A stretch of DNA of 64,000 bases, taken from NCBI RefSeq assembly GCF_003063245.1, contig NZ_MUXE01000004.1, positions 62,001-126,000 of the forward strand, written 5' to 3'. The position numbers and the translations under genes are program-made. Of this stretch, positions 14,087-30,336 are shown piece by piece. Numbering within the stretch: the stretch's first letter is position 1; each line of letters begins with the position of its first letter. The notes beneath the pieces are model-generated. The model saw only the letters and a list, made by a program, of their open reading frames with translations, was not told where the DNA came from and searched no databases. This DNA is from Arcobacter caeni (GTDB lineage Bacteria; Campylobacterota; Campylobacteria; Campylobacterales; Arcobacteraceae).

Positions 14087-14111
14087 TGTCATTTCTAATA
14101 ATAAATGCTAC
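14087..14111 (+). repeat. left transposon end
   Basis: It begins TGTCATTTC and ends ATGCTAC. A second TGCTAC lies 20 bases further in (14126-14131), as expected for repeated TnsB-binding sites. It is an imperfect match to the inverted right ends at 38758-38782 and 40019-40043. The exact outer base is inferred from where comM homology is lost. Confidence 0.75.
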
Positions 14112-14206
14112 TTTCTAATTAATTATGCTACAAATGTTTACTTTGTTTTTTCAAAAATTAAAGAAAAGTCATTTTATAAATATAATTAGAAATAAACAAT
14201 TCAAAA

Positions 14207-14215
14207 TGCTATAAT
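14207..14215 (+). promoter_or_regulatory. extended -10 promoter before the Excalibur gene
   Basis: TGCTATAAT is a TG-n extended -10 with a perfect TATAAT. It is followed after five bases by AAAAAAGGA and the ATG at 14237. No good -35 is seen, which fits an extended -10 promoter. It lies in the left-end region of the transposon. Confidence 0.5.
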
Positions 14216-14236
14216 CAAATAAAAAAGGATTATTCT

Positions 14237-14458
14237 ATGCATAAAATTCTAATAGTTATTGCACTTACGTTATCTCTTTTCTCAGCAGAAACAAAAAAGC
14301 CAAAAACTGAAGTAAAACCAGAATTTAAATGTGAAGGTAAAAAATATTGTAAAGAGATGAGTAGTTGCAAAGAAGCAATGTTTTATTTAAAACAATGTGG
14401 AGTATCTAGACTTGATAGAGATAAAGATGGTATTCCATGTGAGACTATTTGTAGATAA
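14237..14458 (+). CDS. secreted Excalibur-domain small protein
   Basis: 73 residues. A signal peptide occupies residues 1-18 (cleavage near F-S-A). The C-terminal half is an Excalibur module with four cysteines and the calcium-loop pattern D-R-D-K-D-G-I-P-C-E. Such modules are extracytoplasmic and are often found with nucleases or surface proteins. It is the first cargo gene inside the left transposon end. AAAAAGGA precedes the ATG. A secreted nuclease is encoded 140 bases downstream on the other strand. Role unknown. Confidence 0.8.
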   Translation: MHKILIVIALTLSLFSAETKKPKTEVKPEFKCEGKKYCKEMSSCKEAMFYLKQCGVSRLDRDKDGIPCETICR

Positions 14459-14492
14459 GAACTATCTCTTATCTACTAAATTTAGGAATTAT

Positions 14493-14594
14493 TTACTTAT
14501 TTCTTTCTTTTATTTTTGATTCATAAAAACCAAGCATTATTACAACAGCTACAACAATAGTAAAACCAATTATTTCACCTTGAAAATCTTGCAT
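14493..14594 (-). CDS. 33-residue single-helix membrane peptide
   Basis: A short frame starting M-Q-D-F-Q-G-E and continuing as one hydrophobic helix (I-I-G-F-T-I-V-V-A-V-V-I-M-L-G-F-Y), then a basic tail. The ATG overlaps the endonuclease stop as TAATG, and AAAGGA is positioned five bases upstream, so translation is plausibly coupled. No homology is recognised. It might anchor or modulate the neighbouring secreted nuclease, or simply be an unrelated small protein. Confidence 0.5.
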   Translation of the reverse strand: MQDFQGEIIGFTIVVAVVIMLGFYESKIKERNK

Positions 14595-15259
14595 TAAAGT
14601 CCTTTAATTTTATTAATTCTTTTATTTTTCTCAATTTCCCATTCATCTATTGGGTCTTGTTTATCCCATACTTCCATTAGTTTTCTTTCTTGGTCTGAAA
14701 GGTTAATATTATATGTATTACTCATATAAAAATATGCTCTTGCAATATCACCTTTTATTTCATCTCTTACATAAGTTCTATTAGTATCAAAATCTACTTC
14801 AAATTTACATTCACCATACATTCCAACTTTTGGTTTATCTGCTCCATATCTAAGATTACTTCTATCAGCATTTAATTCACCAATAGCAGGAACAAGGTTA
14901 TGCATATCAGCTTCCATTTTATTAAACACAGGGTCTTTACTACAAGCTTTTCTTCCACCATCTTTCCAACAAGGTAAATGTTTACCAAAGTTTTCAGCAG
15001 GCATTATATGTTCCCATTCAATCCTATTAGCTCTTTCATTCTCTTTACCTTTTTTTGTTAGTTCATTTCTTGGAACATAACCACAGCTATTTCTATCTAT
15101 CATATTATCTTTATCTAAAGGATTATATTTACATCCACAGTAGAAAGTTGTTTGATGGTCTTTATATATTTCTTTTAATATTTTTTTTGATTGGTTGAAT
15201 GATTCTGCTAATATTGTGGTTGTGAATAAAAATGCTGTTAGTAATATTATTCTTTTCAT
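14594..15259 (-). CDS. secreted endonuclease I (EndA/Dns family)
   Basis: 221 residues. A signal peptide (about 1-18, M-K-R-I-I-L-L-T-A-F-L-F) is followed by an endonuclease I fold. Catalytic signature R-I-E-W-E-H-I-M-P-A near residue 80, then N-L-V-P-A-I-G-E-L-N-A-D-R-S-N. Paired cysteines (C-G-C-K, C-G-Y, C-W-K, C-S-K) fit periplasmic disulfides. These enzymes degrade DNA nonspecifically in the periplasm or outside the cell. Dns-type nucleases on integrated elements are known to block natural transformation in Campylobacter and Vibrio. It is cargo of an island that also breaks comM. Confidence 0.92.
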   Translation of the reverse strand: MKRIILLTAFLFTTTILAESFNQSKKILKEIYKDHQTTFYCGCKYNPLDKDNMIDRNSCGYVPRNELTKKGKENERANRIEWEHIMPAENFGKHLPCWKDGGRKACSKDPVFNKMEADMHNLVPAIGELNADRSNLRYGADKPKVGMYGECKFEVDFDTNRTYVRDEIKGDIARAYFYMSNTYNINLSDQERKLMEVWDKQDPIDEWEIEKNKRINKIKGL

Positions 15260-15544
15260 ATGTTTCCTTGATTGTTAAAAGTTTTGAATTATAGTTGATT
15301 TTTATTTCAAATTGTTATATTTTTTAATTCTTTTTTAAAACTAATATATAATTGTAAAATTAGATATTTTAGAATAACTTTTAATATTCAGAAATATAAA
15401 ATCTTTTTAGAAAAGGATGTTCTCTTGGATTTACTAAATCATCATCTCTAAACACACAATCCAAAGAATAGAATAATAAAAAAGATTTAAAAGTGTTTAT
15501 ATCAATGAAATCATTTTTGATAAAAATAAAGAAGGGAATTTATA

Positions 15545-16240
15545 ATGGAACAAATGTATATAATAAGTGATGTTCATGGTTGTTATAAAACACTACTTGC
15601 ATTAATAGACCAATTTCCAAATAAACAAAACTCTAAAATAGTTTTTGTTGGTGATTTAATAGATAAAGGTAAACACACTCATGATGTTATTGAATTTGTA
15701 AAGAACAATAACTATGATTGTGTATTAGGTAATCATGATGAAATGATGATACTTTATCATTCTCACCTTGAAAATGATAGACACCATGAAGATTTAAAAT
15801 ATTGGCTCTTTAAATGTGGTGGAGAATTTACTTTAAATTCATATTCTTCAAAAGAAAAGTTTTATGAACATATTGAATATTTAAAAAGTTTACCTCATTA
15901 TATAGAATATGAAGATTATAAAACAGAAGATAATAGATACCTAGTTGTTTCCCATTCAACTGTTGGAAAAGTATGGAATTTAAGAAATAGTACAAATGAA
16001 GATGATGTTGAAGAGTTTAATCATTTTGTTAAATGGAGTAGATGGAAAAATCATGATAATGAAGAAATATTTAATGTCTATGGTCATACAATTTTTCAAG
16101 AAGCACTATTAAATCAGTATAGTTGTGGTATTGATTTAGGATGTTTTTATAAAAATAAAGAGAAATTACCAAATCCTAGACTTTGTGCTTTAGAATTTCC
16201 ATCTATGAAGATTTATACTCAAGAAAGTTTGGAAGATTAA
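15545..16240 (+). CDS. calcineurin-like metallophosphatase
   Basis: 231 residues with the phosphoesterase motifs D-V-H-G near residue 10, G-D-L-I-D-K-G around 36-42 and G-N-H-D-E near 60. C-terminal histidines follow in V-V-S-H-S and V-Y-G-H-T. Spacing resembles the lambda-phosphatase/PrpA/ApaH-like group of protein or dinucleoside polyphosphate phosphatases. The substrate is not deducible. The 285 bases upstream hold no convincing gene. It is island cargo just before the primase-RT-nitrilase operon but 170 bases apart, so functional linkage is uncertain. Confidence 0.8.
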   Translation: MEQMYIISDVHGCYKTLLALIDQFPNKQNSKIVFVGDLIDKGKHTHDVIEFVKNNNYDCVLGNHDEMMILYHSHLENDRHHEDLKYWLFKCGGEFTLNSYSSKEKFYEHIEYLKSLPHYIEYEDYKTEDNRYLVVSHSTVGKVWNLRNSTNEDDVEEFNHFVKWSRWKNHDNEEIFNVYGHTIFQEALLNQYSCGIDLGCFYKNKEKLPNPRLCALEFPSMKIYTQESLED

Positions 16241-16411
16241 GAAAATAAAAATAAGTATATTAAGTGATATTTTTGATAATTACTTTACGACAAATACACA
16301 AATGATGTAATTAAATTATAATAAAGTTAATGTATTAAAATATTATTTATTGTTTTAATTAACTAAGATAATGATAATATATTAAATTACATAATGAAGA
16401 ATATAAAATAA

Positions 16412-17419
16412 ATGAAAAAAGATACTGAAAAATTAAACAATATTCCTATTGCTAAAGTTGCAAATTTATTAGATATTGATATTTCTAGTAAAAAAGTGGT
16501 TAAGTGCTTTAAAGGACATGGTGAAAAAACTCCAAGTTTATCTTTCCAACTAAATAAAAATTTTTTCAATTGCTTTAGTTGTCAAATTTCAGGTGGTCCA
16601 ATTAATCTAGTAAAGGAATTTTATAATTGTAGTTTTATAGAAGCTTGTTCTTGGCTTGAAAATAGGTTTTTTAATTCAACAAATACAATAAGTAATAATT
16701 TTGAGTCACCTAAATATCAATCTAAAATACTAGAAGAAGATTTTTTTGAAGCAGATTCAGAAGTATATGAATGGTTAATACAAAATACAACATTAAGTCA
16801 AGAGACAATTGCATATTTTAAATCACGAGGTATTACTGAAAAAACTTTAAATGATTTTAAAATTAAAGATATTCAAAATCCATATTTTATTTTAAATGAG
16901 GCTAAAAATAGATGGGGATTAGATCGAGTTATCAAATGTGGACTATGGAAATATAAAAATTATAAATATATGCCTGTTTGGTGGCACCATGTTATTTTGT
17001 TTCCTTTTTTTGATATACAAGACCGTATTACATATATACAAGGAAGATTTTTAAATCATGAATATAGATGGATGAACCTTTCTGGCGTTAAATCTACAAT
17101 ATTTAATGCAAGAATTTTTAATAATTTAAAATTCTCTGACAATGTTGTTATTACTGAAGGACTCACAGATACTTTGAGCCTCTATCAAAGAGGTATCAAT
17201 GCTATAGGCATAATGGGTGCATCAAACTTTAAAATTGAATATGTTGATATATTAAAAAATTATGAAATATTAGTCGCACCAGATAATGACCCTGCAGGAG
17301 AGATGTTTTATAAAAAAATAGAAAAATTATTTGAAGTTCACAAATCAATACGTAAAGTTGTCATACCAAGTCAATTTAATGATGTAAATGATGCACTAAA
17401 AGGAAAATCAAGTGAATAA
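16412..17419 (+). CDS. DnaG-like primase (CHC2 zinc finger + TOPRIM)
   Basis: 335 residues. A CHC2 zinc finger at the N-terminus uses C32, H36, C54 and C57 and is followed by G-G-P-I-N-L-V. The middle matches the DnaG catalytic core entry (I-L-F-P-F-F-D-I-Q-D-R, then Q-G-R-F). A TOPRIM domain has E249 in I-T-E-G and D291/D293 in A-P-D-N-D-P-A-G. It lacks the C-terminal helicase-interaction domain and is about half the length of a replicative DnaG. The stop overlaps the reverse transcriptase start by eight bases. A primase encoded with a reverse transcriptase is the unusual part of this operon. Confidence 0.88.
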   Translation: MKKDTEKLNNIPIAKVANLLDIDISSKKVVKCFKGHGEKTPSLSFQLNKNFFNCFSCQISGGPINLVKEFYNCSFIEACSWLENRFFNSTNTISNNFESPKYQSKILEEDFFEADSEVYEWLIQNTTLSQETIAYFKSRGITEKTLNDFKIKDIQNPYFILNEAKNRWGLDRVIKCGLWKYKNYKYMPVWWHHVILFPFFDIQDRITYIQGRFLNHEYRWMNLSGVKSTIFNARIFNNLKFSDNVVITEGLTDTLSLYQRGINAIGIMGASNFKIEYVDILKNYEILVAPDNDPAGEMFYKKIEKLFEVHKSIRKVVIPSQFNDVNDALKGKSSE

Positions 17420-20400
17420 GAAATCAATTATAAGTGAAATAGTGGAAGTAGAAAATTTACATTGGGCATGGACAAAAGCAAAAGCATTTTTTGCAAAAAA
17501 TGAATATTGGTATGACCAGATAGCAATTTCAAATTTTAGTGCAAATTATGAAAATGAATTAAAACAAATTCAAACTGACATTATGCGTAATAAATATAAA
17601 TTAGAACCAATTAGACCAATATTTTTTCCAAAAGGTTTAGATGAACAAGGAAAACCTCGTAATAGACAAATGTTTTTGATAAATGTACGAGACCAAGTGG
17701 TTTGGTTAGCTGTAATGAATATTATAGGAAAGTACTATGATAAACTAATGCCATTTTGGAGTTATGGAAATAGACTATATATTAGTATGTTCCCTGATGG
17801 TCGAACACAAACAGGAAAAATTAAATGGGGATATGGGAATTATCGAAATACAACTACAAATACATATCGAAACTTTCAGCAAAGCTGGCCAAGATTTAGA
17901 AAAGATATCCATCTCATTTCTAAATTAATGCCAAAGAAGAAGATTACGTTAGATTTAGTTGAAAGTGAAGATGTTGAAAATAACAGTAATTTAAAAGAAC
18001 TGCATAAAATAAAATATAAAGAAAAATCGTACTGGAGTAAAAATGAGAGTGACAGTTTATATTGGGCAAGTATAGATTTAACAAAATTTTTTCCAAAATC
18101 TAACACAGATGCAATCAAAAAAAACTTTACTGACTTTGCTGATGAAATAAAAGAAAAATATACAGACTTTTCTCGTTTGCAAGAACTTATAGACAATCTA
18201 CTGGCATTTGAAGTTGATTATGATGGGCTTACAGCTACAGATGATGACTACAAAGCAATAGGACTTAATACTAAATCTAAATTTACAGGTATACCAACAG
18301 CTCTATTTTCTGCTGGCTTTTTATCTAATATTGCTATGTTAAAGGTAGATAAAATTAGTCAAGAAATTCTTGAAAAAAGAAAAGAAATTGCACACTTTAG
18401 ATTTGTAGATGATCATACTTTTTTATCTACGAATGCAGATGCATTACTAGGTTGGATTGAAGAGTATGAAAAAATACTTCAAGAGCATTTTACAGATGCT
18501 AGTGGTTCTTCATGTATGGAAATTAATCATAGTAAAACACTACCAAAAGAGTGTGCAATTTATATTGCAAAAAAGAATGGTAACTTAAAAAAACTAGCAA
18601 AAGACCTAGCCCTAGACTGTCAAAAGTATGAACTAAAAAGTCTTAAAGAGATAAAAGAAAATACACTATCAGAGATGTTTATAGACCCACTTTATCCATC
18701 TACACTAATGAATCATACATTAGAAAAAATGTCTATGATTAATAATACTCCATTTGATTTACTTGATTCAGATGAAGGTTCACGAGTTATACATGATCTT
18801 GAACACTTATTGGTTTCTGAATTTTCAGATGAAGAAATAAGGGGAGATACACGTATGGCATACGCTTCTTCTCGATTAGCACAATATACAGCACGAAAAG
18901 ACCATGACTTTACAAGTATATATTTAGCCAAATCTAAACTACTAAAACATTCGCAAAAAAGAACATGTGAAGAGAAATGTGAAGAAGAAAAAGAAATTAA
19001 AGATCTTTCAGAAGATAAAAAAAACAGTAGGATTACAAATTATAAAAAAGAAAAAGAAAAACTTGAAGATAGTTTAATAAAAGCGAAAGAAAAGCTTGAA
19101 ACTATGATACAACAAGAAAGAAGAAGAATTTTTAATCTTTTGATATACACAATTCGTTCACATCCAGACAAACTTTCATTATGGAAAAATACTATTTTAT
19201 TTTGCGAGAAAAATGGTTTTTCAGAGATGACAAGCAATGAAATATATTATAAAAATGAACTACATGAATTATGGGATTTAATACAAGAACTAAAGAACAA
19301 AAATCATTTTAATCAATTTTCTTATATATATATTATGACTTTTTTTTATGATCAGCTTGCAAATTCTATAAATCGTTCATTTGTTATGTTATCTTCTAAT
19401 CCATCTTACAGAGAAATGTATAGAAAATGTACTTATTTAAATGCTATTTTTAAATATGATTTTTTTGAAAGACTACTAAGTATAAAAGATGAAACTTATT
19501 ACTTTAAACAATCACAAAATCTATTAAAAACAACAATTTCATCAATTATTCATTTAACTAGTGATTTAAAAACAGAAATAAAAGAAAAAATAAAAATTAA
19601 CACTACGTTATTTGAAAATTTGAACATCTTTGATTGGAATAAAAATACAATTGAAAATGTACAATTTCAAGAATTAGATTATGATATGGTTATATGGAAT
19701 ATAAGTGAAAAGTTTATGAAAACATCTGTTGATATTTCAGCAATTATTAAAACATACTATAAATCATCTACTTTTAACAACTATCTCTCGTATAGTATTA
19801 TGTCACTATTTCCTAAACTTCTTAATAAAGAAACTGTAATAAAATTATTAACAAAAGAAGAAATAATTTACTTTCCTTTTTCTTGGTGGTATGAAGTATT
19901 GAAAGAAAATTTTATAACTTATGAAAAATTAAAGAATATTACTAATAAAAGTGCACTAGAATGTTTTGAATATATTAGTATAACAAAAGACAAAGATTTA
20001 CTATTAAATTTACTAAGTTTTAGTCATAATAAAAATAATAGAGAACTCTTTGGATTAAAAATTATTTTACTTTTAATTAACAACTGGTCTAAAGAAGTAG
20101 ACCTATTTACTTTTGATCAAATTAATAAAAGAGGAGATTCATTTCCATATAATTTTATTTTTACTGTAGATAAAGATAAAAAATATAAAATAGATGAAAT
20201 AAACTTACCAAACAGGATTATTGATGAAAGGTATTTTCCAAATTTTATTAACTTTGATGGTCGAGACAACCCTGAAAAAATGTTTATTTTTGGTTTAGGT
20301 ATTTTGTTATATCAACTAATTACACAGACAAAAGAATTACCTAATTATATGTATTTACCTAGTCAGCAATTGTTGAATATAAGCAAGTTTTTATCAGATA

Positions 20401-20687
20401 TTGAAAAGCATCCAATATCTTCTCTAACTACTGAGATAATCAATAGTTGTCTTTCTAAAAGAAATAGAGAAAATCAAAAATTTATTGAGAGAGGAGAGGA
20501 TAAACCTGAAGATACTAAATATGAGTTTGAAGTTAAAAATATTAGTCAATTAAAACTAATTGTCATACAAGCAATTAAAAGTATAGAGTCAGGAAAATAT
20601 CAATTTGATGATAATATTCGTTATCTTATTCCATTTAGTCTTCAAAAACTTAAAGCTGATATTTTGATAAATAAGGAGGATAGATGA
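17412..20687 (+). CDS. large reverse transcriptase (UG/Abi-type, defence-associated)
   Basis: 1091 residues. The palm is in the first 400: an entry motif R-N-R-Q-M-F-L-I-N-V-R-D-Q near residue 85, motif A A-S-I-D-L-T-K-F-F-P (D222), motif B G-I-P-T-A-L-F-S near 293, and motif C F-V-D-D at 331-334. All catalytic aspartates are present. From about 520 to 570 a highly charged coiled coil follows, then a helical C-terminal half with no domain I recognise. The size, the absence of a maturase domain and the nitrilase neighbour suggest a class 1 UG reverse transcriptase rather than a group II intron or retron. GTG start; its end overlaps the nitrilase start (ATGA). Confidence 0.88.
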   Translation: MNKKSIISEIVEVENLHWAWTKAKAFFAKNEYWYDQIAISNFSANYENELKQIQTDIMRNKYKLEPIRPIFFPKGLDEQGKPRNRQMFLINVRDQVVWLAVMNIIGKYYDKLMPFWSYGNRLYISMFPDGRTQTGKIKWGYGNYRNTTTNTYRNFQQSWPRFRKDIHLISKLMPKKKITLDLVESEDVENNSNLKELHKIKYKEKSYWSKNESDSLYWASIDLTKFFPKSNTDAIKKNFTDFADEIKEKYTDFSRLQELIDNLLAFEVDYDGLTATDDDYKAIGLNTKSKFTGIPTALFSAGFLSNIAMLKVDKISQEILEKRKEIAHFRFVDDHTFLSTNADALLGWIEEYEKILQEHFTDASGSSCMEINHSKTLPKECAIYIAKKNGNLKKLAKDLALDCQKYELKSLKEIKENTLSEMFIDPLYPSTLMNHTLEKMSMINNTPFDLLDSDEGSRVIHDLEHLLVSEFSDEEIRGDTRMAYASSRLAQYTARKDHDFTSIYLAKSKLLKHSQKRTCEEKCEEEKEIKDLSEDKKNSRITNYKKEKEKLEDSLIKAKEKLETMIQQERRRIFNLLIYTIRSHPDKLSLWKNTILFCEKNGFSEMTSNEIYYKNELHELWDLIQELKNKNHFNQFSYIYIMTFFYDQLANSINRSFVMLSSNPSYREMYRKCTYLNAIFKYDFFERLLSIKDETYYFKQSQNLLKTTISSIIHLTSDLKTEIKEKIKINTTLFENLNIFDWNKNTIENVQFQELDYDMVIWNISEKFMKTSVDISAIIKTYYKSSTFNNYLSYSIMSLFPKLLNKETVIKLLTKEEIIYFPFSWWYEVLKENFITYEKLKNITNKSALECFEYISITKDKDLLLNLLSFSHNKNNRELFGLKIILLLINNWSKEVDLFTFDQINKRGDSFPYNFIFTVDKDKKYKIDEINLPNRIIDERYFPNFINFDGRDNPEKMFIFGLGILLYQLITQTKELPNYMYLPSQQLLNISKFLSDIEKHPISSLTTEIINSCLSKRNRENQKFIERGEDKPEDTKYEFEVKNISQLKLIVIQAIKSIESGKYQFDDNIRYLIPFSLQKLKADILINKEDR

Positions 20688-21553
20688 GTACATATAAAGA
20701 GTACTTAAAAATTGGATTTATTCAAACAAATCTTGATAGCGATTTAGCTTGGGGTCCTGATTATGATATAAGTTTACAGATGAAAGAAGAATCTGAAAAT
20801 CATGTTTGGCAAGAGATAAAAAAAGGTTTTCATAAACTATTTAACCATCATTCTAAACCAGATATTATCGTAATGCCTGAGTTAACTATTCCTAATGTTT
20901 ATCAAAAAGAATTAAGACGGCTTGCACAAGAAATGAATGCTGTTGTTTTTGCTGGTTTAGACTGGCAAGTTATCGATACTGTAGTAATGAATTATTCACT
21001 TTTAGTAGTTCCAAATAAATGGAACGAAGAAGGACTAAAGTCTTCACTTACAACAGTAAGATACTTAGGTAAAAAATTTCCTGCAAATGCAGAGTCACTA
21101 ACTATAAAAAAATGTGCTGAAAATCATAAAAAAGATTATAAGTTTATTTCTGATGAAAATATCTACTTAATAGATGCAAATCCATTTGGAAAAATAGGAT
21201 TTGCAATTTGTGCAGATTTTTATGATTTAGAACGATATGTTGCATATAAGGGTAAAGTCCAACACATGATTATACTGGCTTATAATACAGATACTAATTC
21301 ATTTTATGCACTAGCTGAAGCTATTTCAAGAATAGTCATGTGCAGTGTTATAATATGTAATACAGGAAAATATGGTGATTCATTAGTTTTCTCACCATAT
21401 AAACTGCCTCATAAGCGTATGATATTTAGAAATCAGGGTGCTGATTTATTTGCAACACAGGTAGTCAACCTTCCAGTTAAATCTTTATGTGATGATCAAA
21501 ATGCAGGACAAAATGCAAAAATGTTTAAAGTACCACCAACACCATTTGAATAA
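20684..21553 (+). CDS. nitrilase-superfamily (C-N hydrolase) protein of the RT operon
   Basis: 289 residues. The catalytic triad is visible as E66 (V-M-P-E-L-T-I-P), a lysine at 130/131 (R-Y-L-G-K-K-F) and C176 (F-A-I-C-A-D-F). The superfamily hydrolyses nitriles or amides. Nitrilase domains are known in DRT1/UG1-type and related reverse transcriptases, where they are needed for antiphage activity though the substrate is unknown. Here it is a separate gene that overlaps the RT stop by four bases after GGAGG. That makes it the third member of a primase-RT-nitrilase operon. Confidence 0.9.
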   Translation: MSTYKEYLKIGFIQTNLDSDLAWGPDYDISLQMKEESENHVWQEIKKGFHKLFNHHSKPDIIVMPELTIPNVYQKELRRLAQEMNAVVFAGLDWQVIDTVVMNYSLLVVPNKWNEEGLKSSLTTVRYLGKKFPANAESLTIKKCAENHKKDYKFISDENIYLIDANPFGKIGFAICADFYDLERYVAYKGKVQHMIILAYNTDTNSFYALAEAISRIVMCSVIICNTGKYGDSLVFSPYKLPHKRMIFRNQGADLFATQVVNLPVKSLCDDQNAGQNAKMFKVPPTPFE

Positions 21554-21559
21554 AAAATG

Positions 21560-21950
21560 TAAATTTAATTATTGAATAGAAATGTATTTTTTAATAGAAC
21601 AATAAGGCATTAGATTTCTAATCCAGTCAAATTCCTTATCGGCGAGGTAGAGTCAAGGGATTTGATAAATAGAACATAGTACTGATTCTGATTTCTTTGC
21701 TTACCTAAAAAATGTCTTTATTTATGATTTTGATAAGTTTTTTGGCTAAAGAAAAGAGTAAATGAAATTAATCATCTACTCTCAAAATCTATGCTGTTAA
21801 ACTTTCAAGTGCTTGGTGTACAAAAACTTGTTACAAAGATGAGTTATAAAATAAGTTCAACTTTAGCTTTTTGAACTTTCTCTAAGTTCCAAACTAAATG
21901 GTTTAATTATGATATAACTTTAATGACTATCCGTTACTGACATAAAACTC
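21560..21950. other. hairpin-rich noncoding stretch, candidate structured RNA
   Basis: About 400 bases without a gene between the nitrilase gene and a convergent gene. It contains at least four stems: ATTAGA/TCTAAT (21609-21622); an 11-pair stem at 21627-21637 with 21655-21665 (one G-U) capped by a 17-base loop that is unusually G/C-rich here; AGAGTA/TACTCT with an inner ATG/CAT (21755-21782); and an 8-bp AAGTTCAA/TTGAACTT stem (21853-21878). Local G/C enrichment in such an A/T-rich genome is a usual sign of structured RNA. Several defence RTs use a neighbouring noncoding RNA. Strand and ends are unknown. Confidence 0.35.
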
Positions 21951-21959
21951 TGAATGGTC

Positions 21960-22703
21960 TTATAATAAATGAGCATAAGGCACTAAGAGATAAGAATAAT
22001 CAAATATTTTTTCTTTTAAATGTTTTCTTTCTTTCTCTTTTATAGTTTTTTTAGCACCATTATATGTGTCAGGCATTACGGTTTTAATAGTAAAACCAAA
22101 TGCAATTTTACCACTCGGGTTTTTTCCTATTTCCATAACAATAGGCATAAAAAGATTATTAGTGATAATATAAGACTCTCTTTTTTCAAATATCTTATTT
22201 TTTTCAATAGTGTCATCACTTTTATAGATACTAAGTTCTTCATACATATCTTCATACATTGATAAGCATCTTAAAAGTATTGGCTTTATCATTGAAGATA
22301 AAAATTTTTTCACTTTATCAGGTGTAGATAACTCTTGAATATTACATCTTTCAATAACTCTTATTAAAGCATGGAAAGAAAAATTAATAAAAATTCTTTT
22401 ATATATTATTCCCTCAATTAAATTAAAATGAATATCAAAGCCAATATATTTATAATCTTCTTCATCATTTTTTTTTATTAAGGTAACATCTGCATAGGCT
22501 ATTTGCCATTCTTGAGTTTCTATTTTACTCTGCTCTAATAAAAGTAGATGAGGAGTTTTTTTAACATGCTCAGCATATCTTCTAATCATTATTTTTCTTT
22601 TATTATTTTTTATGGAAATAATATTAGCTTTACTGCCTTCTTTGAAACAATTGATTATGTCTTGTGCAATCTTATTTGTTGATTTGTTTTTAAATGAATC
22701 CAT
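21960..22703 (-). CDS. hypothetical island protein
   Basis: A 247-residue basic protein without signal peptide or membrane helix. The only notable motif is F-S-F-H-A-L-I-R-V-I-E-R-C-N near residues 108-121, reminiscent of helical DNA- or nucleotide-binding segments but not diagnostic. It lies alone on the minus strand between the RT operon and the helicase operon, convergent to the former and divergent from the latter. I do not recognise a family. As island cargo it may belong to a defence or counter-defence module. Confidence 0.6.
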   Translation of the reverse strand: MDSFKNKSTNKIAQDIINCFKEGSKANIISIKNNKRKIMIRRYAEHVKKTPHLLLLEQSKIETQEWQIAYADVTLIKKNDEEDYKYIGFDIHFNLIEGIIYKRIFINFSFHALIRVIERCNIQELSTPDKVKKFLSSMIKPILLRCLSMYEDMYEELSIYKSDDTIEKNKIFEKRESYIITNNLFMPIVMEIGKNPSGKIAFGFTIKTVMPDTYNGAKKTIKEKERKHLKEKIFDYSYLLVPYAHLL

Positions 22704-22890
22704 GTATATTCCAATATATAATATTTTTGCAGTTTATAGAATTATATATAAAATAATTATAATCTTAGTATAATGATTTAGATGTAAGAAATGATTATTT
22801 TCTTAAATTAATTTCATAGGTACAGTTTAAAAAGTAAATTTAAATAAATAGAATAAGAATTTGATACTTTAAGGATAAGTAAGATTTTAA

Positions 22891-25650
22891 ATGATTTCTT
22901 GTAACACACAATTAAATAAAAATATTGAACAAAAATTAAATGACGAACTTAATAGTATTAAAAATAAGCTTCCAAATTGGATTGTGAATAAAATAGTAAA
23001 AGTTTGTTCATTTGGAAAAATTGATTTATATAAAATTAAACAAGAACAAATAAATAAATTAATTAATGAAATTGAAAAACTTAAAGAAGTTTATGAAAAA
23101 ATTGACAAAGTAGAATTGAAATTAACTGATTTAGAAAATACAACCAAAGATATTTATATTAATGATTATAAAAGAAGACAATATAAAGCTAAATTAGAAT
23201 TAATATTAAGAGAATTTTCTTTTTATGATTTATCCATAGAAAATGAAAAATATAAATTTCTGTCAAATTTTTTTATTGATTCAATAAATGCAGTAAATGA
23301 AAAGAATAATTTATTTGTTAAAGATGAAAAAATAAAAGAAGCAGATTTTTTCAAATCAGTTGAAGAAAATCCGTTAACAGAATCTCAACAAAATGCAGTA
23401 GTGATTAATGAAGACAACAATCTTGTAATTGCAGGAGCAGGTTCTGGTAAAACAAGTGTTCTTGTAGCTAAAATTGGTTATTTAATAAAAAGAGGATTTA
23501 CTAAGCCAGAAGATATTCTTGTTTTAGCTTTTAATAAAAAAGCTGTTGAAGAAATAGAAGAAAGAATTACAAAAAAATTAAATATAACGACTAATGTAAG
23601 CACTTTTCATGCTTTTGGTTTAAATATTATTGGAAAAGCTAATAAAAAACCATTAATATGTAATTGGGCAACAGATGATAAAATATTAACCAATATGATT
23701 AGAAATATAGTAAAAGATAAATTAAATGATGTAAATTTTTATGAATTATTTAAACAATATTTTCTTGAACATTTTGTTCCTTATAAAAACCAATTTGATT
23801 TCAAAAATAAGGGAGAATATTACGATTATATTAAAAATTATGATTTAAGAACTCTTAATGGAGACCTTGTAAAAAGTTATGAAGAGCTTGAAATCTCTAA
23901 TTTTTTACGATTAAAAAATATTAATTATATATATGAATCTCCTTACGAACATGAAACTTCAACATCACGATATAGACAATATCAACCAGACTTTTATCTT
24001 CCTGATTATAGAATTTATATTGAACATTATGGAATTTCAAAAGATGGAAAAACAGCAGACTACATTAATAATGAAGATTATTTAAATGGTATTGTATGGA
24101 AAAGAAGTGTTCATCGGCATTTTAATACTCAATGTATTGAAACATATAGTTATGAGAAGTCTGAAGGTCATTTATTATCTTCCTTAGAATCTAAATTAAA
24201 AGCTCATAGCGTGATTATGAAAGATATTCCTTTTGAAGAAGTATTAAAAATATTCAATGAAAAGAATGGAACAGTAGATAGATTTACTAAACTTACAATT
24301 CAATTTTTAAATCATTTTAAAAGTAATCAATTTACCTATGAAGATGTAAGAGAAAGAATAGGTATTTTAGATTTTAGAGAAAAAGCTTTTTTAAATATAT
24401 TTGAAATTATTTATTTTGAATATGAAAAGAAAAAGAATGAATTTAAATGCATAGACTTTTATGACATGATAAATGATGCAATTAAAATTGTAAAAAGTGG
24501 TAAATATATACCACCATATAAATATATTCTAATTGATGAGTTTCAAGATATATCATCGAGTAGAAGCAATTTAATTAAATCACTTTGTGAAAAGATAGAT
24601 GATTCAATTTTGACGGTTGTTGGAGATGATTGGCAATCTATTAATAGATTTGCAGGAAGTGATGTTTCTATTATTAAGAATTTTAAAAATCATTTTGGTG
24701 TTAGTGAAACAATCTTTTTAGACAATACATTTAGATTTGATAATAATATTTCAAATGTTGCATCAAAATTCATTACAAAAAATCCTACACAAATCAATAA
24801 ATCAATAAAAACATTTAAGTTTTCTGAAAATCCAAGTATTTATATCTATCGGAATGTAAAAAATGAAGAAGCTTATATTGAAAGAATTCTAAATTTCTTA
24901 AATAAAAAAACAGAGAATAATAAAAAGAAAGATGTAATTATTTTGGGAAGATTTAATCATTTAAAGCCAGATAATTTTAAAGAAATTCAAAATTACTATA
25001 CTAATTTTAATATTCAATTCTTATCCGTACATGGCTCAAAAGGATTAGGTGCAGACTATGTAATTTTATTAGGATTAGATAAAGGTAAATTTGGTTTCCC
25101 TTGTGAAATAGAAGATGACCCTATTTTAGATATTGTAATGTCACAACAAGAAAATTATGAATTTGCAGAAGAAAGACGATTATTTTATGTGGCATTAACA
25201 AGAACTAAAGAAAAGCTTTTTATTGTAAGTGACATTCATAATAGTTCAACTTTTATAAATGAAATTGTTGATGATAATACTGAAAAAGAAATTCAGTATT
25301 TAAATAATAGAGATTATGTTGCTAAATATTGCCCAGAATGTCAATTAGGTAGTTTAGTAGAAAAAAATGTTGAAGATAGATATTTTTATGGTTGCAGTAA
25401 TTACCCCTTATGTGATTATACGGATGAAATTAGGAAATGTTCAGAATGTGGTAGTAATATAGTAAAACTTGTAGATAAAAATATTGCAAAATGTGAAAAT
25501 ATCAAATGTGATAAAATAGAAATCTTATGCAAATTGTGTAATTCATTTATGGTAGTTAGAAAAAAAGATGATAGGGAATTTTTAGCTTGTTCAAGTTATT
25601 CTAAAACGGGTTGTAGATATACTCAGAATTTCGCTGATAGGGAATCTTAG
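22891..25650 (+). CDS. UvrD/HelD-like superfamily 1 helicase with zinc-ribbon C-terminus
   Basis: 919 residues. The order is a helical N-terminal region, Q motif plus Walker A (A-G-A-G-S-G-K-T, 181-188), and an insert holding Q-P-D-F-Y-L-P-D-Y-R-I-Y-I-E-H-Y-G near residues 360-380. That insert resembles the PD-(D/E)xK-like segment of helicase IV relatives. Walker B is I-D-E-F-Q-D, then V-G-D-D-W-Q-S-I-N-R-F-A-G and V-A-L-T-R-T-K-E. The last 110 residues are three or four C-x2-C zinc ribbons of the topoisomerase I type. It is longer than helicase IV (about 680). It starts a three-gene plus-strand group with a possible TnsE-like gene and a SEC-C gene. Confidence 0.88.
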   Translation: MISCNTQLNKNIEQKLNDELNSIKNKLPNWIVNKIVKVCSFGKIDLYKIKQEQINKLINEIEKLKEVYEKIDKVELKLTDLENTTKDIYINDYKRRQYKAKLELILREFSFYDLSIENEKYKFLSNFFIDSINAVNEKNNLFVKDEKIKEADFFKSVEENPLTESQQNAVVINEDNNLVIAGAGSGKTSVLVAKIGYLIKRGFTKPEDILVLAFNKKAVEEIEERITKKLNITTNVSTFHAFGLNIIGKANKKPLICNWATDDKILTNMIRNIVKDKLNDVNFYELFKQYFLEHFVPYKNQFDFKNKGEYYDYIKNYDLRTLNGDLVKSYEELEISNFLRLKNINYIYESPYEHETSTSRYRQYQPDFYLPDYRIYIEHYGISKDGKTADYINNEDYLNGIVWKRSVHRHFNTQCIETYSYEKSEGHLLSSLESKLKAHSVIMKDIPFEEVLKIFNEKNGTVDRFTKLTIQFLNHFKSNQFTYEDVRERIGILDFREKAFLNIFEIIYFEYEKKKNEFKCIDFYDMINDAIKIVKSGKYIPPYKYILIDEFQDISSSRSNLIKSLCEKIDDSILTVVGDDWQSINRFAGSDVSIIKNFKNHFGVSETIFLDNTFRFDNNISNVASKFITKNPTQINKSIKTFKFSENPSIYIYRNVKNEEAYIERILNFLNKKTENNKKKDVIILGRFNHLKPDNFKEIQNYYTNFNIQFLSVHGSKGLGADYVILLGLDKGKFGFPCEIEDDPILDIVMSQQENYEFAEERRLFYVALTRTKEKLFIVSDIHNSSTFINEIVDDNTEKEIQYLNNRDYVAKYCPECQLGSLVEKNVEDRYFYGCSNYPLCDYTDEIRKCSECGSNIVKLVDKNIAKCENIKCDKIEILCKLCNSFMVVRKKDDREFLACSSYSKTGCRYTQNFADRES

Positions 25651-25745
25651 AATTTAAAATATTGACTTTTTGTATGTAGATAAAAAGAAATTTCAGATTT
25701 GCATTCTTTAAAATCAATATGATTACAATATTATTTTAATTAAAA

Positions 25746-27692
25746 ATGCTACAATTCATTATGCAAGAAAAAAATAAAATACCATATCAAAAAATGCCGG
25801 GAAATGATTGTAATTATTTAGTTTTAAACTATGGAGCGGCAGTAAAGATTATAAATGAATCTTCAATCCCAAATATCCAAGTAATCCTAAGAAGAATAGA
25901 TATTAATAATCAATATTTTATAAAAAATTATCGTGATATAATTGTGTACATCCCTATACCTGAACTTGATGAAGTAAGAATCGGTTCTGTTTGGAGAAAG
26001 CGCGAAAAAGTATTAGAAAAATGGAAATTTTTTGATGATTCTGAATATATGGAAGATGTAGATTTTAATTTTGATTTCAATATTAATCCTCCTCAGATAG
26101 TAAAGTTTAATGAAAAAATAGATTCATTAAATGATTCACTTTCTAATATTTATAAAATAAATTTTCAAAATACAGATCAATATAAAATACCTTATTTCAA
26201 TAAAACGAATTACACAAAATTAATTAGTGATGACAATATAACTGTTTTAATACCTTGTATTGAGTTATTTGTTTCAGCATATACACCAGAACAAAAACAA
26301 ATAAAGCAAAGATTATTACAATTTAATATAGATGATGCAATCAATGAATTTATAAATTTAGAGAATTCAAAAATTGAAAACCAAGAATATTATATAGGTC
26401 TAAATAAAAAAATGGAAGATTCTAATATAAAATTTTTAGCTTATGCAAAATTTAATAAGACATCGAGAAATAGAATAAGTAAACTATCTTCAAGTTTAGA
26501 ATTAGATGAAGGATATTTTATTGATAAATGTCAGGCAAGATATCCAATGGTTTTACCATATCATCCAACACATTTATTTATAACAAGTGATGGTTTATGG
26601 TTTAATGAAAAGACGTTTCTAGTTCAAAGGATTTATATAATTAGTATACCTAGTGACATTACTGTTAGTGGTGTTATTGAAAAGGAAATTTTTAAGGTAG
26701 AAAAGAAAATTTATAAACCAAAAGAAAAAGAACCTAAGCCTAAAATTGTAGAAAATGAAGAAGAAAATCAGAATAATGAGAATGGTCAGAATAGTTCAGA
26801 TGAAATTAATATAATAGGAATTAATAGTAATAAACAACCAAAAAAAAGAATTTCTCTTTTTAGAATAAAAACGCAAGTTAATATTATTGATGAGAATAAA
26901 CCAAAAATAGAGATTTTAGAAAAAGAAGAAGAAAAAATAGAATTTATTGAAGATGAGAAAACAGAAAATAATAAACAAATAGATATTCAAAATGATGAAG
27001 AAATTTCAAAAAAAAATATAGAAAATATTGAAAATGTTGATGGTTCAGATGCAAAAAAGCTTACATCTGGAGATGATTCAAGACAAATAAAATATTTATT
27101 ATCTCATTGTGATGTAGAAACAAATGCTTTATTTAATCAAATAACAGAAATTCTGAATACTTTTAAAATAGAAAAATTTATAGTCGATTATAAATTTTTA
27201 GATAAGAATTTTGCAGAAGTAACTGAATTAAAAGAAACTACATTTTATGAAACACTGTTTATTAATAAATTTGAAAAAAAAGAATTAAAAGATAATTGGT
27301 ATTTATTAAGACAGAGAGAAAATGGAGAGCTAAAAGAGTTAGGTTATAGAGGATATCTCTTAATAGAAATAAAATTAGCTGATGATAAATATTGTTATTT
27401 ATTAGAAATAGGTAAAAAAGAATCAGAAAGTATTTATTTAGGTGTAATTTTTAAGAATATAAATTTTAATAAATTAGCAAATAAAAATTTAGCTCAAATT
27501 TTAAGAAAGATTGTTATTAATCATGGAAATTATAGTAAAAAAGATAAAAAAGAAAAAAAATTTAATGCAGTAGATTTAGGAGTTAGATATAAAACATATT
27601 CTCATAAATTTGATGAAAAATTAAATAAATTTATAAATCTGGATAATACAATAAAGAAAAAAATGAAGTTATTAAATATTTTGAAAATATAA
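25746..27692 (+). CDS. unknown protein, possible TnsE-like
   Basis: 648 residues with a globular N-terminal part, an acidic low-complexity linker (about 325-440, rich in E, N, K) and a globular C-terminal domain. From memory it parallels Tn7 TnsE in three places: an I-P-x-x-E-L segment before a helical stretch; an L-F-I-T-S-D-G-L-W-F-N-E-K-T-F-L-V segment like the TnsE L-x-V-x-G ... Y-L-V region; and C-terminal Y-L-L-E-I before a basic helix. TnsE directs Tn7 to replicating plasmid DNA. The match is by eye and weak. The start may be the ATG at 25746 or 25761; no good SD is seen. It lies 10 bases before the SEC-C gene. Confidence 0.45.
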   Translation: MLQFIMQEKNKIPYQKMPGNDCNYLVLNYGAAVKIINESSIPNIQVILRRIDINNQYFIKNYRDIIVYIPIPELDEVRIGSVWRKREKVLEKWKFFDDSEYMEDVDFNFDFNINPPQIVKFNEKIDSLNDSLSNIYKINFQNTDQYKIPYFNKTNYTKLISDDNITVLIPCIELFVSAYTPEQKQIKQRLLQFNIDDAINEFINLENSKIENQEYYIGLNKKMEDSNIKFLAYAKFNKTSRNRISKLSSSLELDEGYFIDKCQARYPMVLPYHPTHLFITSDGLWFNEKTFLVQRIYIISIPSDITVSGVIEKEIFKVEKKIYKPKEKEPKPKIVENEEENQNNENGQNSSDEINIIGINSNKQPKKRISLFRIKTQVNIIDENKPKIEILEKEEEKIEFIEDEKTENNKQIDIQNDEEISKKNIENIENVDGSDAKKLTSGDDSRQIKYLLSHCDVETNALFNQITEILNTFKIEKFIVDYKFLDKNFAEVTELKETTFYETLFINKFEKKELKDNWYLLRQRENGELKELGYRGYLLIEIKLADDKYCYLLEIGKKESESIYLGVIFKNINFNKLANKNLAQILRKIVINHGNYSKKDKKEKKFNAVDLGVRYKTYSHKFDEKLNKFINLDNTIKKKMKLLNILKI

Positions 27693-27701
27693 GGGGAAAA
27701 T

Positions 27702-27979
27702 GTGGGGAAAGGAAATAAACGTAATGAGATTTGTTTTTGTGGGAGTGGGAAAAAGTATAAAAATTGTCATGCTATAAAAGAATTTGAGAAAAAAGTTGAA
27801 TTACATGAAATGAATAAAGATTTTATGAATAGTCAAGCAAAAAAGAAATGTATGGCACCACAAATTTTAAAAGATGAATGTACTAAAAAGATAATAAAAG
27901 CACATACTATTTCTAAAAGTTGTAATCTAAAACAAATATCTAAAGATGGTCATGTTATGCATTTTAAAACAAATATTAT
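27702..27979 (+). pseudogene. SEC-C motif protein gene, 5' part, split by IS1595-type element
   Basis: The N-terminus reads N-E-I-C-F-C-G-S-G-K-K-Y-K-N-C-H, a textbook SEC-C zinc motif. H-T-I-S-K-S-C-N-L-K-Q-I and D-G-H-V, found in a family of SEC-C island proteins, follow. The frame enters the insertion sequence at 27980 and stops after four more codons. Removing the element and one copy of the eight-base duplication joins codon 92 in frame to the piece at 32042, giving a protein of about 374 residues. The gene follows the 648-residue gene by 10 bases. The native start is GTG. Confidence 0.85.
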
Positions 27980-28003
27980 CGATATTATGTAGCACTTGCA
28001 CAA
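27972..28003 (+). repeat. left target duplication and terminal repeat of the IS1595-type element
   Basis: Target copy AATATTAT (27972-27979), then the 24-bp terminal repeat (27980-28003), which is the exact reverse complement of 32018-32041. Imperfect pairing continues for a few A/T bases inward. Confidence 0.95.
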
Positions 28004-28054
28004 AAATAAATTTTAATCAAAATTTATAATTTTTTTAAATTCTTAAACTAAATT

Positions 28055-28285
28055 TTAAAGAGTAATTTTCGATTTTTTCTTTTTGTTAGAAGCTTTTGTA
28101 ATAAGTAACTCATCCCCATCATCTAAATTATAATCATCATACAATTTATCTAATACAAGCGTAGTTACTTTATCTGTAATATCTAATTCACTTTCTAAAA
28201 AGCCATCATCAGAGTAAGTACAAAGGTTTATAGTACCTTTGTCTTTGTTATATTCTAGGGTTTGTGTTTTATTATGAATAACCAT
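28055..28285 (-). CDS. small acidic passenger protein next to the nuclease gene
   Basis: About 76 residues from the ATG at 28285; a longer upstream frame lies inside the nuclease gene and is less likely. It is acidic with a lysine-rich tail (K-K-K-K-S-K). The start overlaps the end of the nuclease gene by 14 bases, so it is translationally coupled. No family is recognised. Its place in the restriction-modification cassette suggests an accessory or inhibitor role, but that is only inferred from position. Confidence 0.55.
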   Translation of the reverse strand: MVIHNKTQTLEYNKDKGTINLCTYSDDGFLESELDITDKVTTLVLDKLYDDYNLDDGDELLITKASNKKKKSKITL

Positions 28286-29129
28286 GTTGTTTTTTCCAAC
28301 AATCAATACATAATACAGCATTTTGGGTTCTAGGTGTAAATGACTTATTACATGATTGGCAAATTGGTAAGAGGTTACTTATTGATTCACATTTATAATC
28401 ATCATTTCCACCTATTGATTTTTTGATTAATGATTCAAATGTCAATAAATTTTCTCCCTCATAAGCTTTTATGTCAACTTTTTGTAATTTACTTAATTCT
28501 TTCAATAAATCAATAGAATTTAACTTACTAAATACTGATATATCGAAATAAAATATATACATATCCAATTCTCTACTTTTTTCTCTAGCAATCATAGGGT
28601 ATTTTGTTGTTGTATCTAAAATTAAAGAATTTCTAAGCCAATTCCCATATGGTTCTCCCTCAAATTTTTGCCATCTTTTCTTAAATTCTTCTTTCAAATC
28701 TTCATTAGCATTTTTTACTGTACATCTTTCTAATGTAGAATCTTGAAATACCATTAAAACGGGTTGATTACAATAATAATCTATTTGATAAAAACCAAGA
28801 ATTTGATGAATATCAGCTCCTGTATCATGTTTATAAAATCTTTGACATTTGTCTTTTACTTCAATCCAAAAGAAATTCCCATCATGAAGTTCACATAATA
28901 AATCTGGTGCAATTACTAGCTTTCCATTAGGCAATTTTACAGCTGGTGCACCATTTATTCTTAAAGTATTATCTGGTTCATATAGAGTGATTCTTTTTAT
29001 ATCTGGATGAGCTTTAAATAATTGTTCTACTTTAGTAACTAAACTTTTTGAATTAGTAATTGAATTTTCTTTTTTTTCTTGTAATCCATTTTCATGTTTA
29101 TATGTATCGTTTCTCTCATTGATTGGCAT
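28272..29129 (-). CDS. PD-(D/E)xK restriction endonuclease-like protein
   Basis: 285 residues. A nuclease core shows A-P-D-L-L-C-E-L near residue 75 followed by F-F-W-I-E-V-K-D-K near residue 92, the D...E-x-K pattern of PD-(D/E)xK enzymes. The C-terminus is a C-x2-C...C-x2-C zinc ribbon (C-Q-S-C, C-I-D-C). It overlaps the methyltransferase gene by 14 bases on the same strand, which makes a type II restriction partner the natural reading. The target sequence is unknown. It is a passenger of the IS1595-type element. Confidence 0.75.
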   Translation of the reverse strand: MPINERNDTYKHENGLQEKKENSITNSKSLVTKVEQLFKAHPDIKRITLYEPDNTLRINGAPAVKLPNGKLVIAPDLLCELHDGNFFWIEVKDKCQRFYKHDTGADIHQILGFYQIDYYCNQPVLMVFQDSTLERCTVKNANEDLKEEFKKRWQKFEGEPYGNWLRNSLILDTTTKYPMIAREKSRELDMYIFYFDISVFSKLNSIDLLKELSKLQKVDIKAYEGENLLTFESLIKKSIGGNDDYKCESISNLLPICQSCNKSFTPRTQNAVLCIDCWKKQHGYS

Positions 29130-30036
29130 TTAAATTTATCCTTTCTTCAATTCTTGTATTTATAATTTCAATATATCTTTTATTAGTTTCAAAACCTATA
29201 AATTTCCGATTTAAATTCAAACTTGCAATAGCTGTTGTACCACTTCCCATACAATTATCTAAAATCATATCATTTTCATTAGTATATGTTTTTATTAAAT
29301 ACTCAAATAATTCTATAGGTTTTTGTGTTGGATGAAGAGAATTGGAATTTGGATTAGAAAATTCTAAAATTGTATTAGGGTTTTTTAATCCATTATTATC
29401 AAATTCATATCCATGCTTTTCACCAGTAGAACCAAATACACTTTCACTTCTATCAACTTTATTTATTTTGTCAGTTCTTTTTTTTCCATTAACCATTTGT
29501 CTGTTAAATGTTGGTAACTTTTTATAAAAAATTAGCACATTCTCATGCCAACTCATAAACATTTTTTTTGCATTCATAAAATTTGATGGTCTAGTTTTAA
29601 GCCATATTAATTCTTGTTTGAAATCTTTTATATTACTATCAATAAGTTCACTTGTGAATGGTTGCTTTGCAGTTAATACTATTGCCCCATCATCCTTAAT
29701 AATTCTTTTATAATGAGTCCATAAACCTTTCTTTGATTGTTCTTTCCATTTAATTTTAAATATTTCAATAGGTATGTTATTCTCAAAACAATATAATTTA
29801 TACTCATTTTCATTCATAGAAACAATTTTATTTTTGATTTCAATTTCAATATAATCATTTAATGGAATAATAATATCCCATTTACAAGCTGTAGTACCAT
29901 AGGGTAAATCACAAAGTATCATATCAATTGATTTATCTTTGATTTTTTCCATTCCTATCATACAATCTTCATTATAAACTTTATTGATTTCCAAACCATA
30001 TTTTAGTTCATTTTGAACATGAAGTGGTGCTACCAT
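29116..30036 (-). CDS. DNA adenine or N4-cytosine methyltransferase (type II, beta class)
   Basis: 306 residues. The catalytic motif is in the form D-L-P-Y-G near residue 43 (D/N-P-P-Y family). The S-adenosylmethionine motif N-C-M-G-S-G-T-T-A-I-A comes near residue 260. Catalytic motif first and AdoMet motif last is the beta arrangement. H-P-T-Q-K-P-I-E-L precedes the AdoMet motif, as usual. It probably protects DNA from the nuclease encoded by the overlapping downstream gene. ATG preceded by AAAGGAGAT. Confidence 0.88.
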   Translation of the reverse strand: MVAPLHVQNELKYGLEINKVYNEDCMIGMEKIKDKSIDMILCDLPYGTTACKWDIIIPLNDYIEIEIKNKIVSMNENEYKLYCFENNIPIEIFKIKWKEQSKKGLWTHYKRIIKDDGAIVLTAKQPFTSELIDSNIKDFKQELIWLKTRPSNFMNAKKMFMSWHENVLIFYKKLPTFNRQMVNGKKRTDKINKVDRSESVFGSTGEKHGYEFDNNGLKNPNTILEFSNPNSNSLHPTQKPIELFEYLIKTYTNENDMILDNCMGSGTTAIASLNLNRKFIGFETNKRYIEIINTRIEERINLNANQ

Positions 30037-30111
30037 AATATCTCCTTTAAAAACATTTGAATAGTATCAAGTTTTTTATAATCATTTTTTTAAATATTGC
30101 ATTTTGCAATA

Positions 30112-30336
30112 TTAAATTTCCAAATTTAGATTTTTTACCCCAAGTGCCATCATACATTTACAGAAAAATACAGCACTAAAACCTTTTCTTGTCATTTTAT
30201 TGTTATAAGATTTATCAGTTAAATTTTCCCCATAAGGTTTTAATAATTCAACTAAATCTTTAACTTTTAATCCTCTTCTATCTAATTCAGCTTTAATTAG
30301 ATTTTTAGGCATATTTTCATCAAAACTTTTTTCCAT
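30112..30336 (-). CDS. small helix-turn-helix-like protein (DUF6471-like)
   Basis: 74 residues with a helical pattern, L-I-K-A-E-L-D-R-R-G-L-K-V-K-D-L-V-E-L-L, followed by N-K-M-T-R-K-G-F-S-A-V-F-F, like small DUF6471 or phage-type DNA-binding proteins. It is divergent from the transposase and upstream of the methyltransferase, where a controller of restriction-modification expression would sit. The assignment is by pattern only. Confidence 0.6.
   Translation of the reverse strand: MEKSFDENMPKNLIKAELDRRGLKVKDLVELLKPYGENLTDKSYNNKMTRKGFSAVFFCKCMMALGVKNLNLEI

What the first reader, a model, noticed from the sequence alone, without database searches (positions are those of the whole stretch)
16412..21553. 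Primase-reverse transcriptase-nitrilase operon: candidate new defence system
Three genes overlap by eight and four bases: a DnaG-like CHC2+TOPRIM primase, a 1091-residue RT with intact F-V-D-D and a long unrecognised helical C-terminus, and a nitrilase with an intact E-K-C triad. Seen: overlaps, motifs and location among transposon cargo. Known: nitrilase domains accompany some class 1 UG/DRT reverse transcriptases used against phages. Inferred: the primase is a core component, perhaps supplying primers or templates for the RT. I do not know a described DRT type with a separate DnaG-like primase as first gene.
Basis: partly seen in the sequence, partly recalled or inferred. Interest (0 to 1): 0.9.

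Follow-up and report, generated by a model that had tools for sequence, protein, structure and literature searches.

The report
Known-type antiviral reverse transcriptase operon
A bacterial mobile element carries three overlapping genes, a primase, a reverse transcriptase and a nitrilase, that together match an already catalogued kind of candidate anti-phage reverse-transcriptase system.

Summary
In detail: primase (16412-17419), reverse transcriptase (17412-20687) and nitrilase (20684-21553) overlap by 8 and 4 bases and keep their active sites. The novelty claim fails. In PADLOC-DB 2.0.0 (2023) all three match models labelled DRT: RTasDnaG-like (2.8e-79), RT_UG6 (4e-119), RTasNitrilase (3.2e-89). 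The unit recurs: of 12 UG6 loci collected from four phyla, 10 carry primase, RT and nitrilase in that order; two Flavobacterium loci lack the primase; one of the 10, in Elusimicrobiota, has RT and nitrilase fused. RT profile and nitrilase both find solved DRT1 (9yfd) as best PDB sequence match. The likely working model is DRT1-like: DNA made by the RT assembles and gates a nitrilase that kills the infected cell, with the catalytically intact primase supplying RNA primers. The primase role is inference. The operon is cargo of a Tn7-like element that split comM. New member of a known kind; I found no functional test of UG6 in the open-licence papers searched.

The parts
16412..17419 (+). DnaG-like primase, 335 aa: CHC2 zinc finger, DnaG RNA-polymerase core, TOPRIM; no room for a C-terminal helicase-binding domain (recalled layout of DnaG)
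   Evidence: PADLOC RTasDnaG-like 2.8e-79; Pfam; PDB DnaG hits 5guj 4.4e-8, 2au3 6e-7; active-site residues invariant 10 of 10
17412..20687 (+). UG6 reverse transcriptase, 1091 aa; RT core about residues 4-480, then a long alpha-helical, repeat-like C-terminus
   Evidence: PADLOC RT_UG6 4e-119; model mean pLDDT 69.7, RT core Z 21.2 to G2L4 RT 9d4s (273 aligned, rmsd 2.8); profile hit to DRT1 9yfd 9.3e-12
20684..21553 (+). Nitrilase, 289 aa, E66-K130-C176 (plus E137)
   Evidence: PADLOC RTasNitrilase 3.2e-89; the only significant PDB hit is DRT1 9yfd, 2.4e-12; invariant residues
13008..14086 (+). Left part of the interrupted comM (yifB) gene
   Evidence: Mg_chelatase 5.9e-59; 10 of 12 other genomes of the genus have a hit over residues 1-360 inside an unbroken 504-547 aa frame; three of them read at this point
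40044..40447 (+). Right part of comM
   Evidence: Reading frame containing CNELEIQRYKNRLSEPFLDRIDLYV, matching the intact relatives
14087..40043 (.). Tn7-like element (about 25.9 kb) carrying the operon; end positions approximate
   Evidence: comM split; candidate ends share 13 of 20 bases and a TGTCA repeat, but comparison with intact comM does not confirm a clean duplication
34057..39889 (-). Transposition genes: TniQ, TniB, TnsB/Mu-like transposase, two TnsA copies with a 151-aa HTH protein between
   Evidence: Pfam hits

Best explanation
The three genes form a UG6-type defence-associated reverse transcriptase (DRT) operon carried as cargo by a Tn7-like element in comM. It most likely works like DRT1 split into subunits. 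The RT makes short DNA without a genomic template; that DNA drives assembly of an RT-nitrilase complex, which is held inactive until a phage replication event frees it; the nitrilase then attacks an essential small molecule and the cell dies before the phage spreads. The DnaG-like primase most likely makes short RNA primers, either to start RT synthesis in place of protein priming or to start a second strand on the RT's own DNA. Shown here: membership, gene order, intact active sites, co-inheritance, relationship to DRT1. Taken from the DRT1 paper: DNA-gated nitrilase and abortive infection. Inferred: that UG6 does the same, and the primase's role.
For: PADLOC matches for all three; RT_UG6 in 12 of 12 RTs and RTasDnaG-like in 10 of 10 primases. 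Primase-RT-nitrilase order in 10 of 12 loci from Campylobacterota, Alphaproteobacteria, Bacteroidota and Elusimicrobiota. RT-nitrilase fusion at one locus, L072. DRT1 is the top PDB sequence hit for the RT profile and for the nitrilase. Pairwise identities correlate: RT-primase r 0.75, RT-nitrilase 0.88, primase-nitrilase 0.76, 10 loci, 0 of 10000 permutations each. All 10 primases also match the 2280-position RT_UG29 model, the window's at profile positions 10-292, which suggests a primase-RT fusion in UG29. DRT1 mechanism: PMC13275509, sections read.
Against: Two of 12 loci lack the primase, and in their genomes the primase profile finds only larger DnaG-like proteins (665-811 aa), so it is not universally needed. 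DRT1 and DRT5 make DNA with the purified RT protein alone. The single-sequence search of the RT finds no PDB entry; DRT1 appears only with the 12-row profile. The window RT itself has no Drt1a match at 0.001, though 11 of the 12 RTs do, one of them (L072) with its fused nitrilase included. DRT1's priming serine could not be placed in UG6. The correlation of identities may partly reflect shared lineage. No test of UG6 activity was found.
Confidence: 0.6

Rival explanations
1. Same DRT, but the RT primes itself on its own residues as DRT1 does, and the primase acts on the effector or sensing side, for example binding or capping the RT-made DNA or reporting phage replication.
For: Purified DRT1 and DRT5 make protein-linked DNA without a primase. 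Two UG6 loci lack it. Hydroxyl residues such as Y352, T436, S441 and T480 are invariant in 12 of 12 RTs with or without primase, so no self-priming residue is visibly lost.
Against: The primase keeps its zinc ligands and TOPRIM acidic residues in 10 of 10, which suggests catalysis is needed.
Confidence: 0.25
2. Primase and RT together make double-stranded or RNA-primed DNA, as in DRT7 (RT fused to a PrimPol) and DRT3 (two RTs), and the duplex itself is the toxin or trigger.
For: DRT3 and, by a preprint, DRT7 pair two polymerase activities to make duplex or duplex-like DNA (PMC13213688 read in full).
Against: DRT7's partner is a fused primase-polymerase domain; here it is a separate DnaG/TOPRIM type. 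The conserved nitrilase already supplies an effector.
Confidence: 0.2
3. The operon serves the transposon or general DNA repair rather than anti-phage defence.
For: In the window it sits inside a Tn7-like element.
Against: The other loci lie in different surroundings; the window's neighbouring metallophosphatase and helicase genes have no homologue in the other 11 loci; the PADLOC models are DRT models.
Confidence: 0.07

Closest known systems
UG6 reverse transcriptases with PADLOC partners RTasDnaG-like and RTasNitrilase
   Same: All three window proteins match these models at E 2.8e-79 or better
   Different: Nothing in kind; the window primase covers model positions 44-372 of 550 and the nitrilase 122-395 of 397
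DRT1 (class 3, RT-nitrilase, PDB 9yfd)
   Same: Top PDB sequence relative of the RT profile and of the nitrilase; RT, helical region and nitrilase in the same order
   Different: DRT1 is one polypeptide, and the paper does not mention a primase; here three genes; the priming serine S402 is not conserved in other class 3 DRTs
UG5-nitrilase
   Same: The nitrilase matches RT_UG5-nitrilase 3.5e-33
   Different: The window RT matches UG6, not UG5, and the nitrilase is not fused
RT_UG29
   Same: The primase matches profile positions 10-292 of 2280
   Different: The window RT does not match RT_UG29, and the primase is a separate gene
DRT7 (UG10, RT-PrimPol)
   Same: Also couples an RT with a primase-type enzyme (PMC13213688)
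   Different: Fused primase-polymerase there; DnaG/TOPRIM type and a separate gene here

Membership tests
UG6-type DRT | RT matches the UG6 profile best | tested here: met
   Best match for the window, 4e-119; 12 of 12 RTs match RT_UG6 at 0.001
UG6-type DRT | Catalogued DnaG-like and nitrilase partners next to the RT | tested here: met
   RTasDnaG-like 2.8e-79, RTasNitrilase 3.2e-89; order kept in 10 of 12 loci
UG6-type DRT | Anti-phage activity | not testable with these tools
   No experiment possible; no test of UG6 found in searches
Class 3 UG/Abi RT | RT joined to a nitrilase or phosphohydrolase | tested here: inconclusive
   PMC13275509 defines it as a multidomain protein; in the window the nitrilase is a separate overlapping gene, in L072 it is fused
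Class 3 UG/Abi RT | Falls in the class 3 clade of the RT tree | tested here: inconclusive
   No UG-wide tree was built; Drt1a is matched by 11 of 12 RTs but not the window's; PDB profile hit is DRT1
DRT1 | RT and nitrilase in one polypeptide | tested here: not met
   Separate genes
DRT1 | Conserved priming serine S402 | tested here: inconclusive
   The alignment has no stretch over that region; no UG6-wide equivalent identified
DRT7 | Primase-polymerase (PrimPol) domain fused to the RT | tested here: not met
   Primase is CHC2/TOPRIM and separate
UG29 | RT matches RT_UG29 | tested here: not met
   Of the window proteins only the primase matches it
Tn7-like transposon | TnsA, TnsB, TniB (TnsC-like) and TniQ genes | tested here: met
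Tn7-like transposon | Inverted ends with 5-bp target duplication | tested here: inconclusive
   Candidate TGTCA repeat and 13 of 20 end bases, not confirmed against intact comM

The most novel reading that the evidence does not exclude
UG6 is a primer-dependent DRT: a dedicated DnaG-like primase, cut loose from the replication helicase, lays RNA primers that its RT extends, so the nitrilase is gated by RNA-primed or duplex DNA rather than by protein-linked single strands. The two primase-less relatives, whose motif reads FVDDQ instead of FVDDH, would have returned to, or never left, self-priming.
Probability: 0.3. Interest if true: 0.7.

Novelty: new member of a known kind. Interest (0 to 1): 0.38.

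Why it matters
DRTs differ mainly in how they start and template DNA. A system with a separate cellular-type primase would be a natural comparison for the protein-primed DRT1 and DRT5 and the PrimPol-fused DRT7, and the primase-plus, primase-less and RT-nitrilase-fused variants listed here give ready material for that test. The claim of a new defence system itself does not stand.

Tried and rejected
Plasmid and phage collections: no RT match. The nitrilase hit 14 plasmid records, 8 of them annotated as RT-domain proteins in the listing, all under 60% identity, and no phage. An RT fragment found only two weak plasmid records, one annotated ltrA. Seven viral-contig scans gave no relative.

PDLC03800 as a genome-wide marker is useless alone: 395 of 397 genomes match because it rings for ordinary DnaG. 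Only two matches reach 2.8e-79 (this operon and G350); the next is 1.1e-43.

Rows dropped: of 10 loci, L050 and L051 carry none of the three proteins and were left out. L003, L039, L041 and L042 are one locus (G350) and were counted once; loci that repeat L043-L049 likewise. RT_UG6 hits in five other relatives are short (E 6e-8 to 4.2e-4) and were not counted.

Structure: DRT1 (9yfd) was not among the fold matches shown, and its presence in that library was not checked. The C-terminal model (mean pLDDT 72.3) gave no Foldseek match at E 0.001 and only generic helical-repeat rows, Z 11 or less, so the C-terminal fold is 'helical repeat-like' only.

No Rfam family at gathering threshold in 14000-28300. 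Promoter-like sites 38 against 41.1 expected; terminator-like sites 5 against 1.0 expected, none just after the operon on its strand. The upstream metallophosphatase gene (15545-16240) lies 171 bases away and has no homologue in the other 11 loci at E 0.01, so it was left out.

comM ends: joining the flanks gives an open frame, but it lacks residues found in intact relatives, so exact ends and duplication are not claimed.

Full report
OBSERVATION. Pfam sees CHC2 and TOPRIM domains in the first and nothing above cut-off in the RT or nitrilase. NCBIfam gives only matches below its cut-offs (DnaG for the primase, group II RT for the RT) and none for the nitrilase. The described motifs are present and conserved.

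WHAT IT IS. PADLOC-DB 2.0.0 of 2023 names all three: primase RTasDnaG-like 2.8e-79, RT RT_UG6 4e-119, nitrilase RTasNitrilase 3.2e-89, each labelled DRT. The primase also matches the start of the 2280-position RT_UG29 model (2.8e-18). The separate primase is therefore a catalogued RT partner. Which RT group each partner model was made for is not stated by the library; I recall that the UG classes come from Mestre 2022, which was not held. PMC8934634 (passages seen) shows nitrilase beside one UG6 RT and dnaG among occasional RT neighbours.

DOES IT RECUR? A two-row RT profile found 2 of 397 genomes of the window's phylum at E 1e-20: this one and G350, whose operon is 51, 51 and 71% identical. 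G350's contig has the length of the named Sulfurospirillaceae contig of L042, which is how I place the window in Campylobacterota. One scan of genome contigs with an 82-residue RT query gave 10 loci, 8 real: the Sulfurospirillaceae MAG (same locus as G350), Ferrovibrio, Tardiphaga, Mucilaginibacter, Flavobacterium chilense and an Elusimicrobia MAG with all three genes in order, and two other Flavobacterium with RT and nitrilase only. The scan needs an exact 8-residue match, so it misses more distant relatives. Profile searches then found 3 of 398 genomes in the genus of G440 (none new), 3 of 341 in the family of G438 (two new, L070 and L071) and 2 of 334 in the phylum of G441 (one new, L072). 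Total 12 loci: 10 with primase, 2 without. In the genomes of those two the primase profile finds only larger DnaG-like proteins of 665-811 aa. L072 has the primase followed by a single 1270-aa RT-nitrilase. Neighbouring genes overlap or lie within 11 bases at all 10 primase loci, with the first possible start codon taken.

CO-INHERITANCE. Across the 10 primase loci, pairwise identities correlate (RT-primase 0.75, RT-nitrilase 0.88, primase-nitrilase 0.76; 0 of 10000 permutations each). Trees of the three proteins broadly agree: window with L042, L045 with L046, and the four alphaproteobacterial rows together, although several joins are weak, L072 sits on a long branch, and its neighbours differ between the RT and nitrilase trees. 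Shared lineage can explain part of this. The mix of phyla suggests horizontal spread, which I did not test.

THE PRIMASE. Zinc ligands C32, H36, C54, C57 and TOPRIM residues E249, D253, D291, D293 are invariant in 10 of 10; the E and D-x-D line up with solved DnaG 5guj. At 335 aa it has no room for DnaG's helicase-binding C-terminus (recalled). It is distinct from the cell's own DnaG: among 397 genomes only the two operon copies score 2.8e-79 or better, the next 1.1e-43.

THE RT. The model (mean pLDDT 69.7) has an RT core matching group II-like RTs (9d4s Z 21.2, 273 aligned, rmsd 2.8, residues 4-478) and AbiA over residues 5-698 (Z 14.7, rmsd 4.8, 382 aligned). The C-terminus is helical, with only generic repeat matches. 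The RT alone finds no PDB entry by sequence; the 12-row profile finds DRT1 9yfd best, 9.3e-12, and for the nitrilase 9yfd is the only significant hit, 2.4e-12. All 10 primase-bearing RTs have H and both primase-less ones Q right after the V-D-D motif; with one primase-less clade this cannot be separated from ancestry.

MECHANISM. DRT1 makes template-free, protein-primed A-rich DNA, forms dormant filaments around its nitrilase and causes abortive infection; RT or nitrilase mutants lose protection; T4 escapers map to the Dda helicase (PMC13275509, sections 4-7, 9, 10 read). I propose the same logic here with RT and nitrilase as separate subunits. The primase's intact catalytic residues argue for RNA-primer synthesis; because DRT1, DRT5 and the two primase-less loci do without, a start role for the RT is plausible but unproved. 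DRT7 and DRT3 show that pairing two polymerase activities is an established DRT theme (PMC13213688 read in full; PMC13174585 passages).

SETTING. comM is split, left part ending near 14086 and right part starting near 40044; 10 of 12 other genomes of the genus have an unbroken comM frame of 504-547 aa, while G397 and G403 have it broken or partial. TnsA (two copies), a TnsB/Mu-like transposase, TniB and TniQ lie between. Exact ends are unsettled.

NOVELTY. A new member of a catalogued kind. I found no experimental study of UG6 in searches of an open-licence library; subscription papers and most preprints are not covered, so this is not proof of absence.

Noticed in passing
window 37934-39889: Two tnsA genes with a 151-aa helix-turn-helix protein between them, suggesting a partial duplication of the transposition module.
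   Followed up: no
window 22891-25650: A 919-aa helicase IV-like UvrD protein with topoisomerase-type zinc ribbons, which also matches GajB and RTasHel models; no homologue in the other 11 UG6 loci.
   Followed up: partly
window 28272-30036: A DNA methyltransferase overlapping an unrecognised 285-aa gene, possibly a restriction-modification pair.
   Followed up: no
window 25746-27692: A 648-aa protein with no match in Pfam, PADLOC or NCBIfam.
   Followed up: no
L042:6397-7137: An RTasTM gene (1.5e-29) overlaps the primase by 11 bases, a possible fourth component; not found in the other loci searched.
   Followed up: partly
L044:6268-7158 and L071:11209-12180: A DEDDh exonuclease-like gene (1.6e-27) ends 7 bases before the primase in L044; its homologue (8.8e-73) lies convergent just after the nitrilase in L071. 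A possible accessory in two of four alphaproteobacterial loci.
   Followed up: partly
L048 and L049: Primase-less UG6 RTs have Q right after the V-D-D motif where all 10 primase-bearing ones have H.
   Followed up: partly
G403, contig C1, 547647-570853: comM also lies in two pieces about 22 kb apart in this relative, broken near residue 292 rather than 360, hinting at another insertion in the same gene.
   Followed up: no
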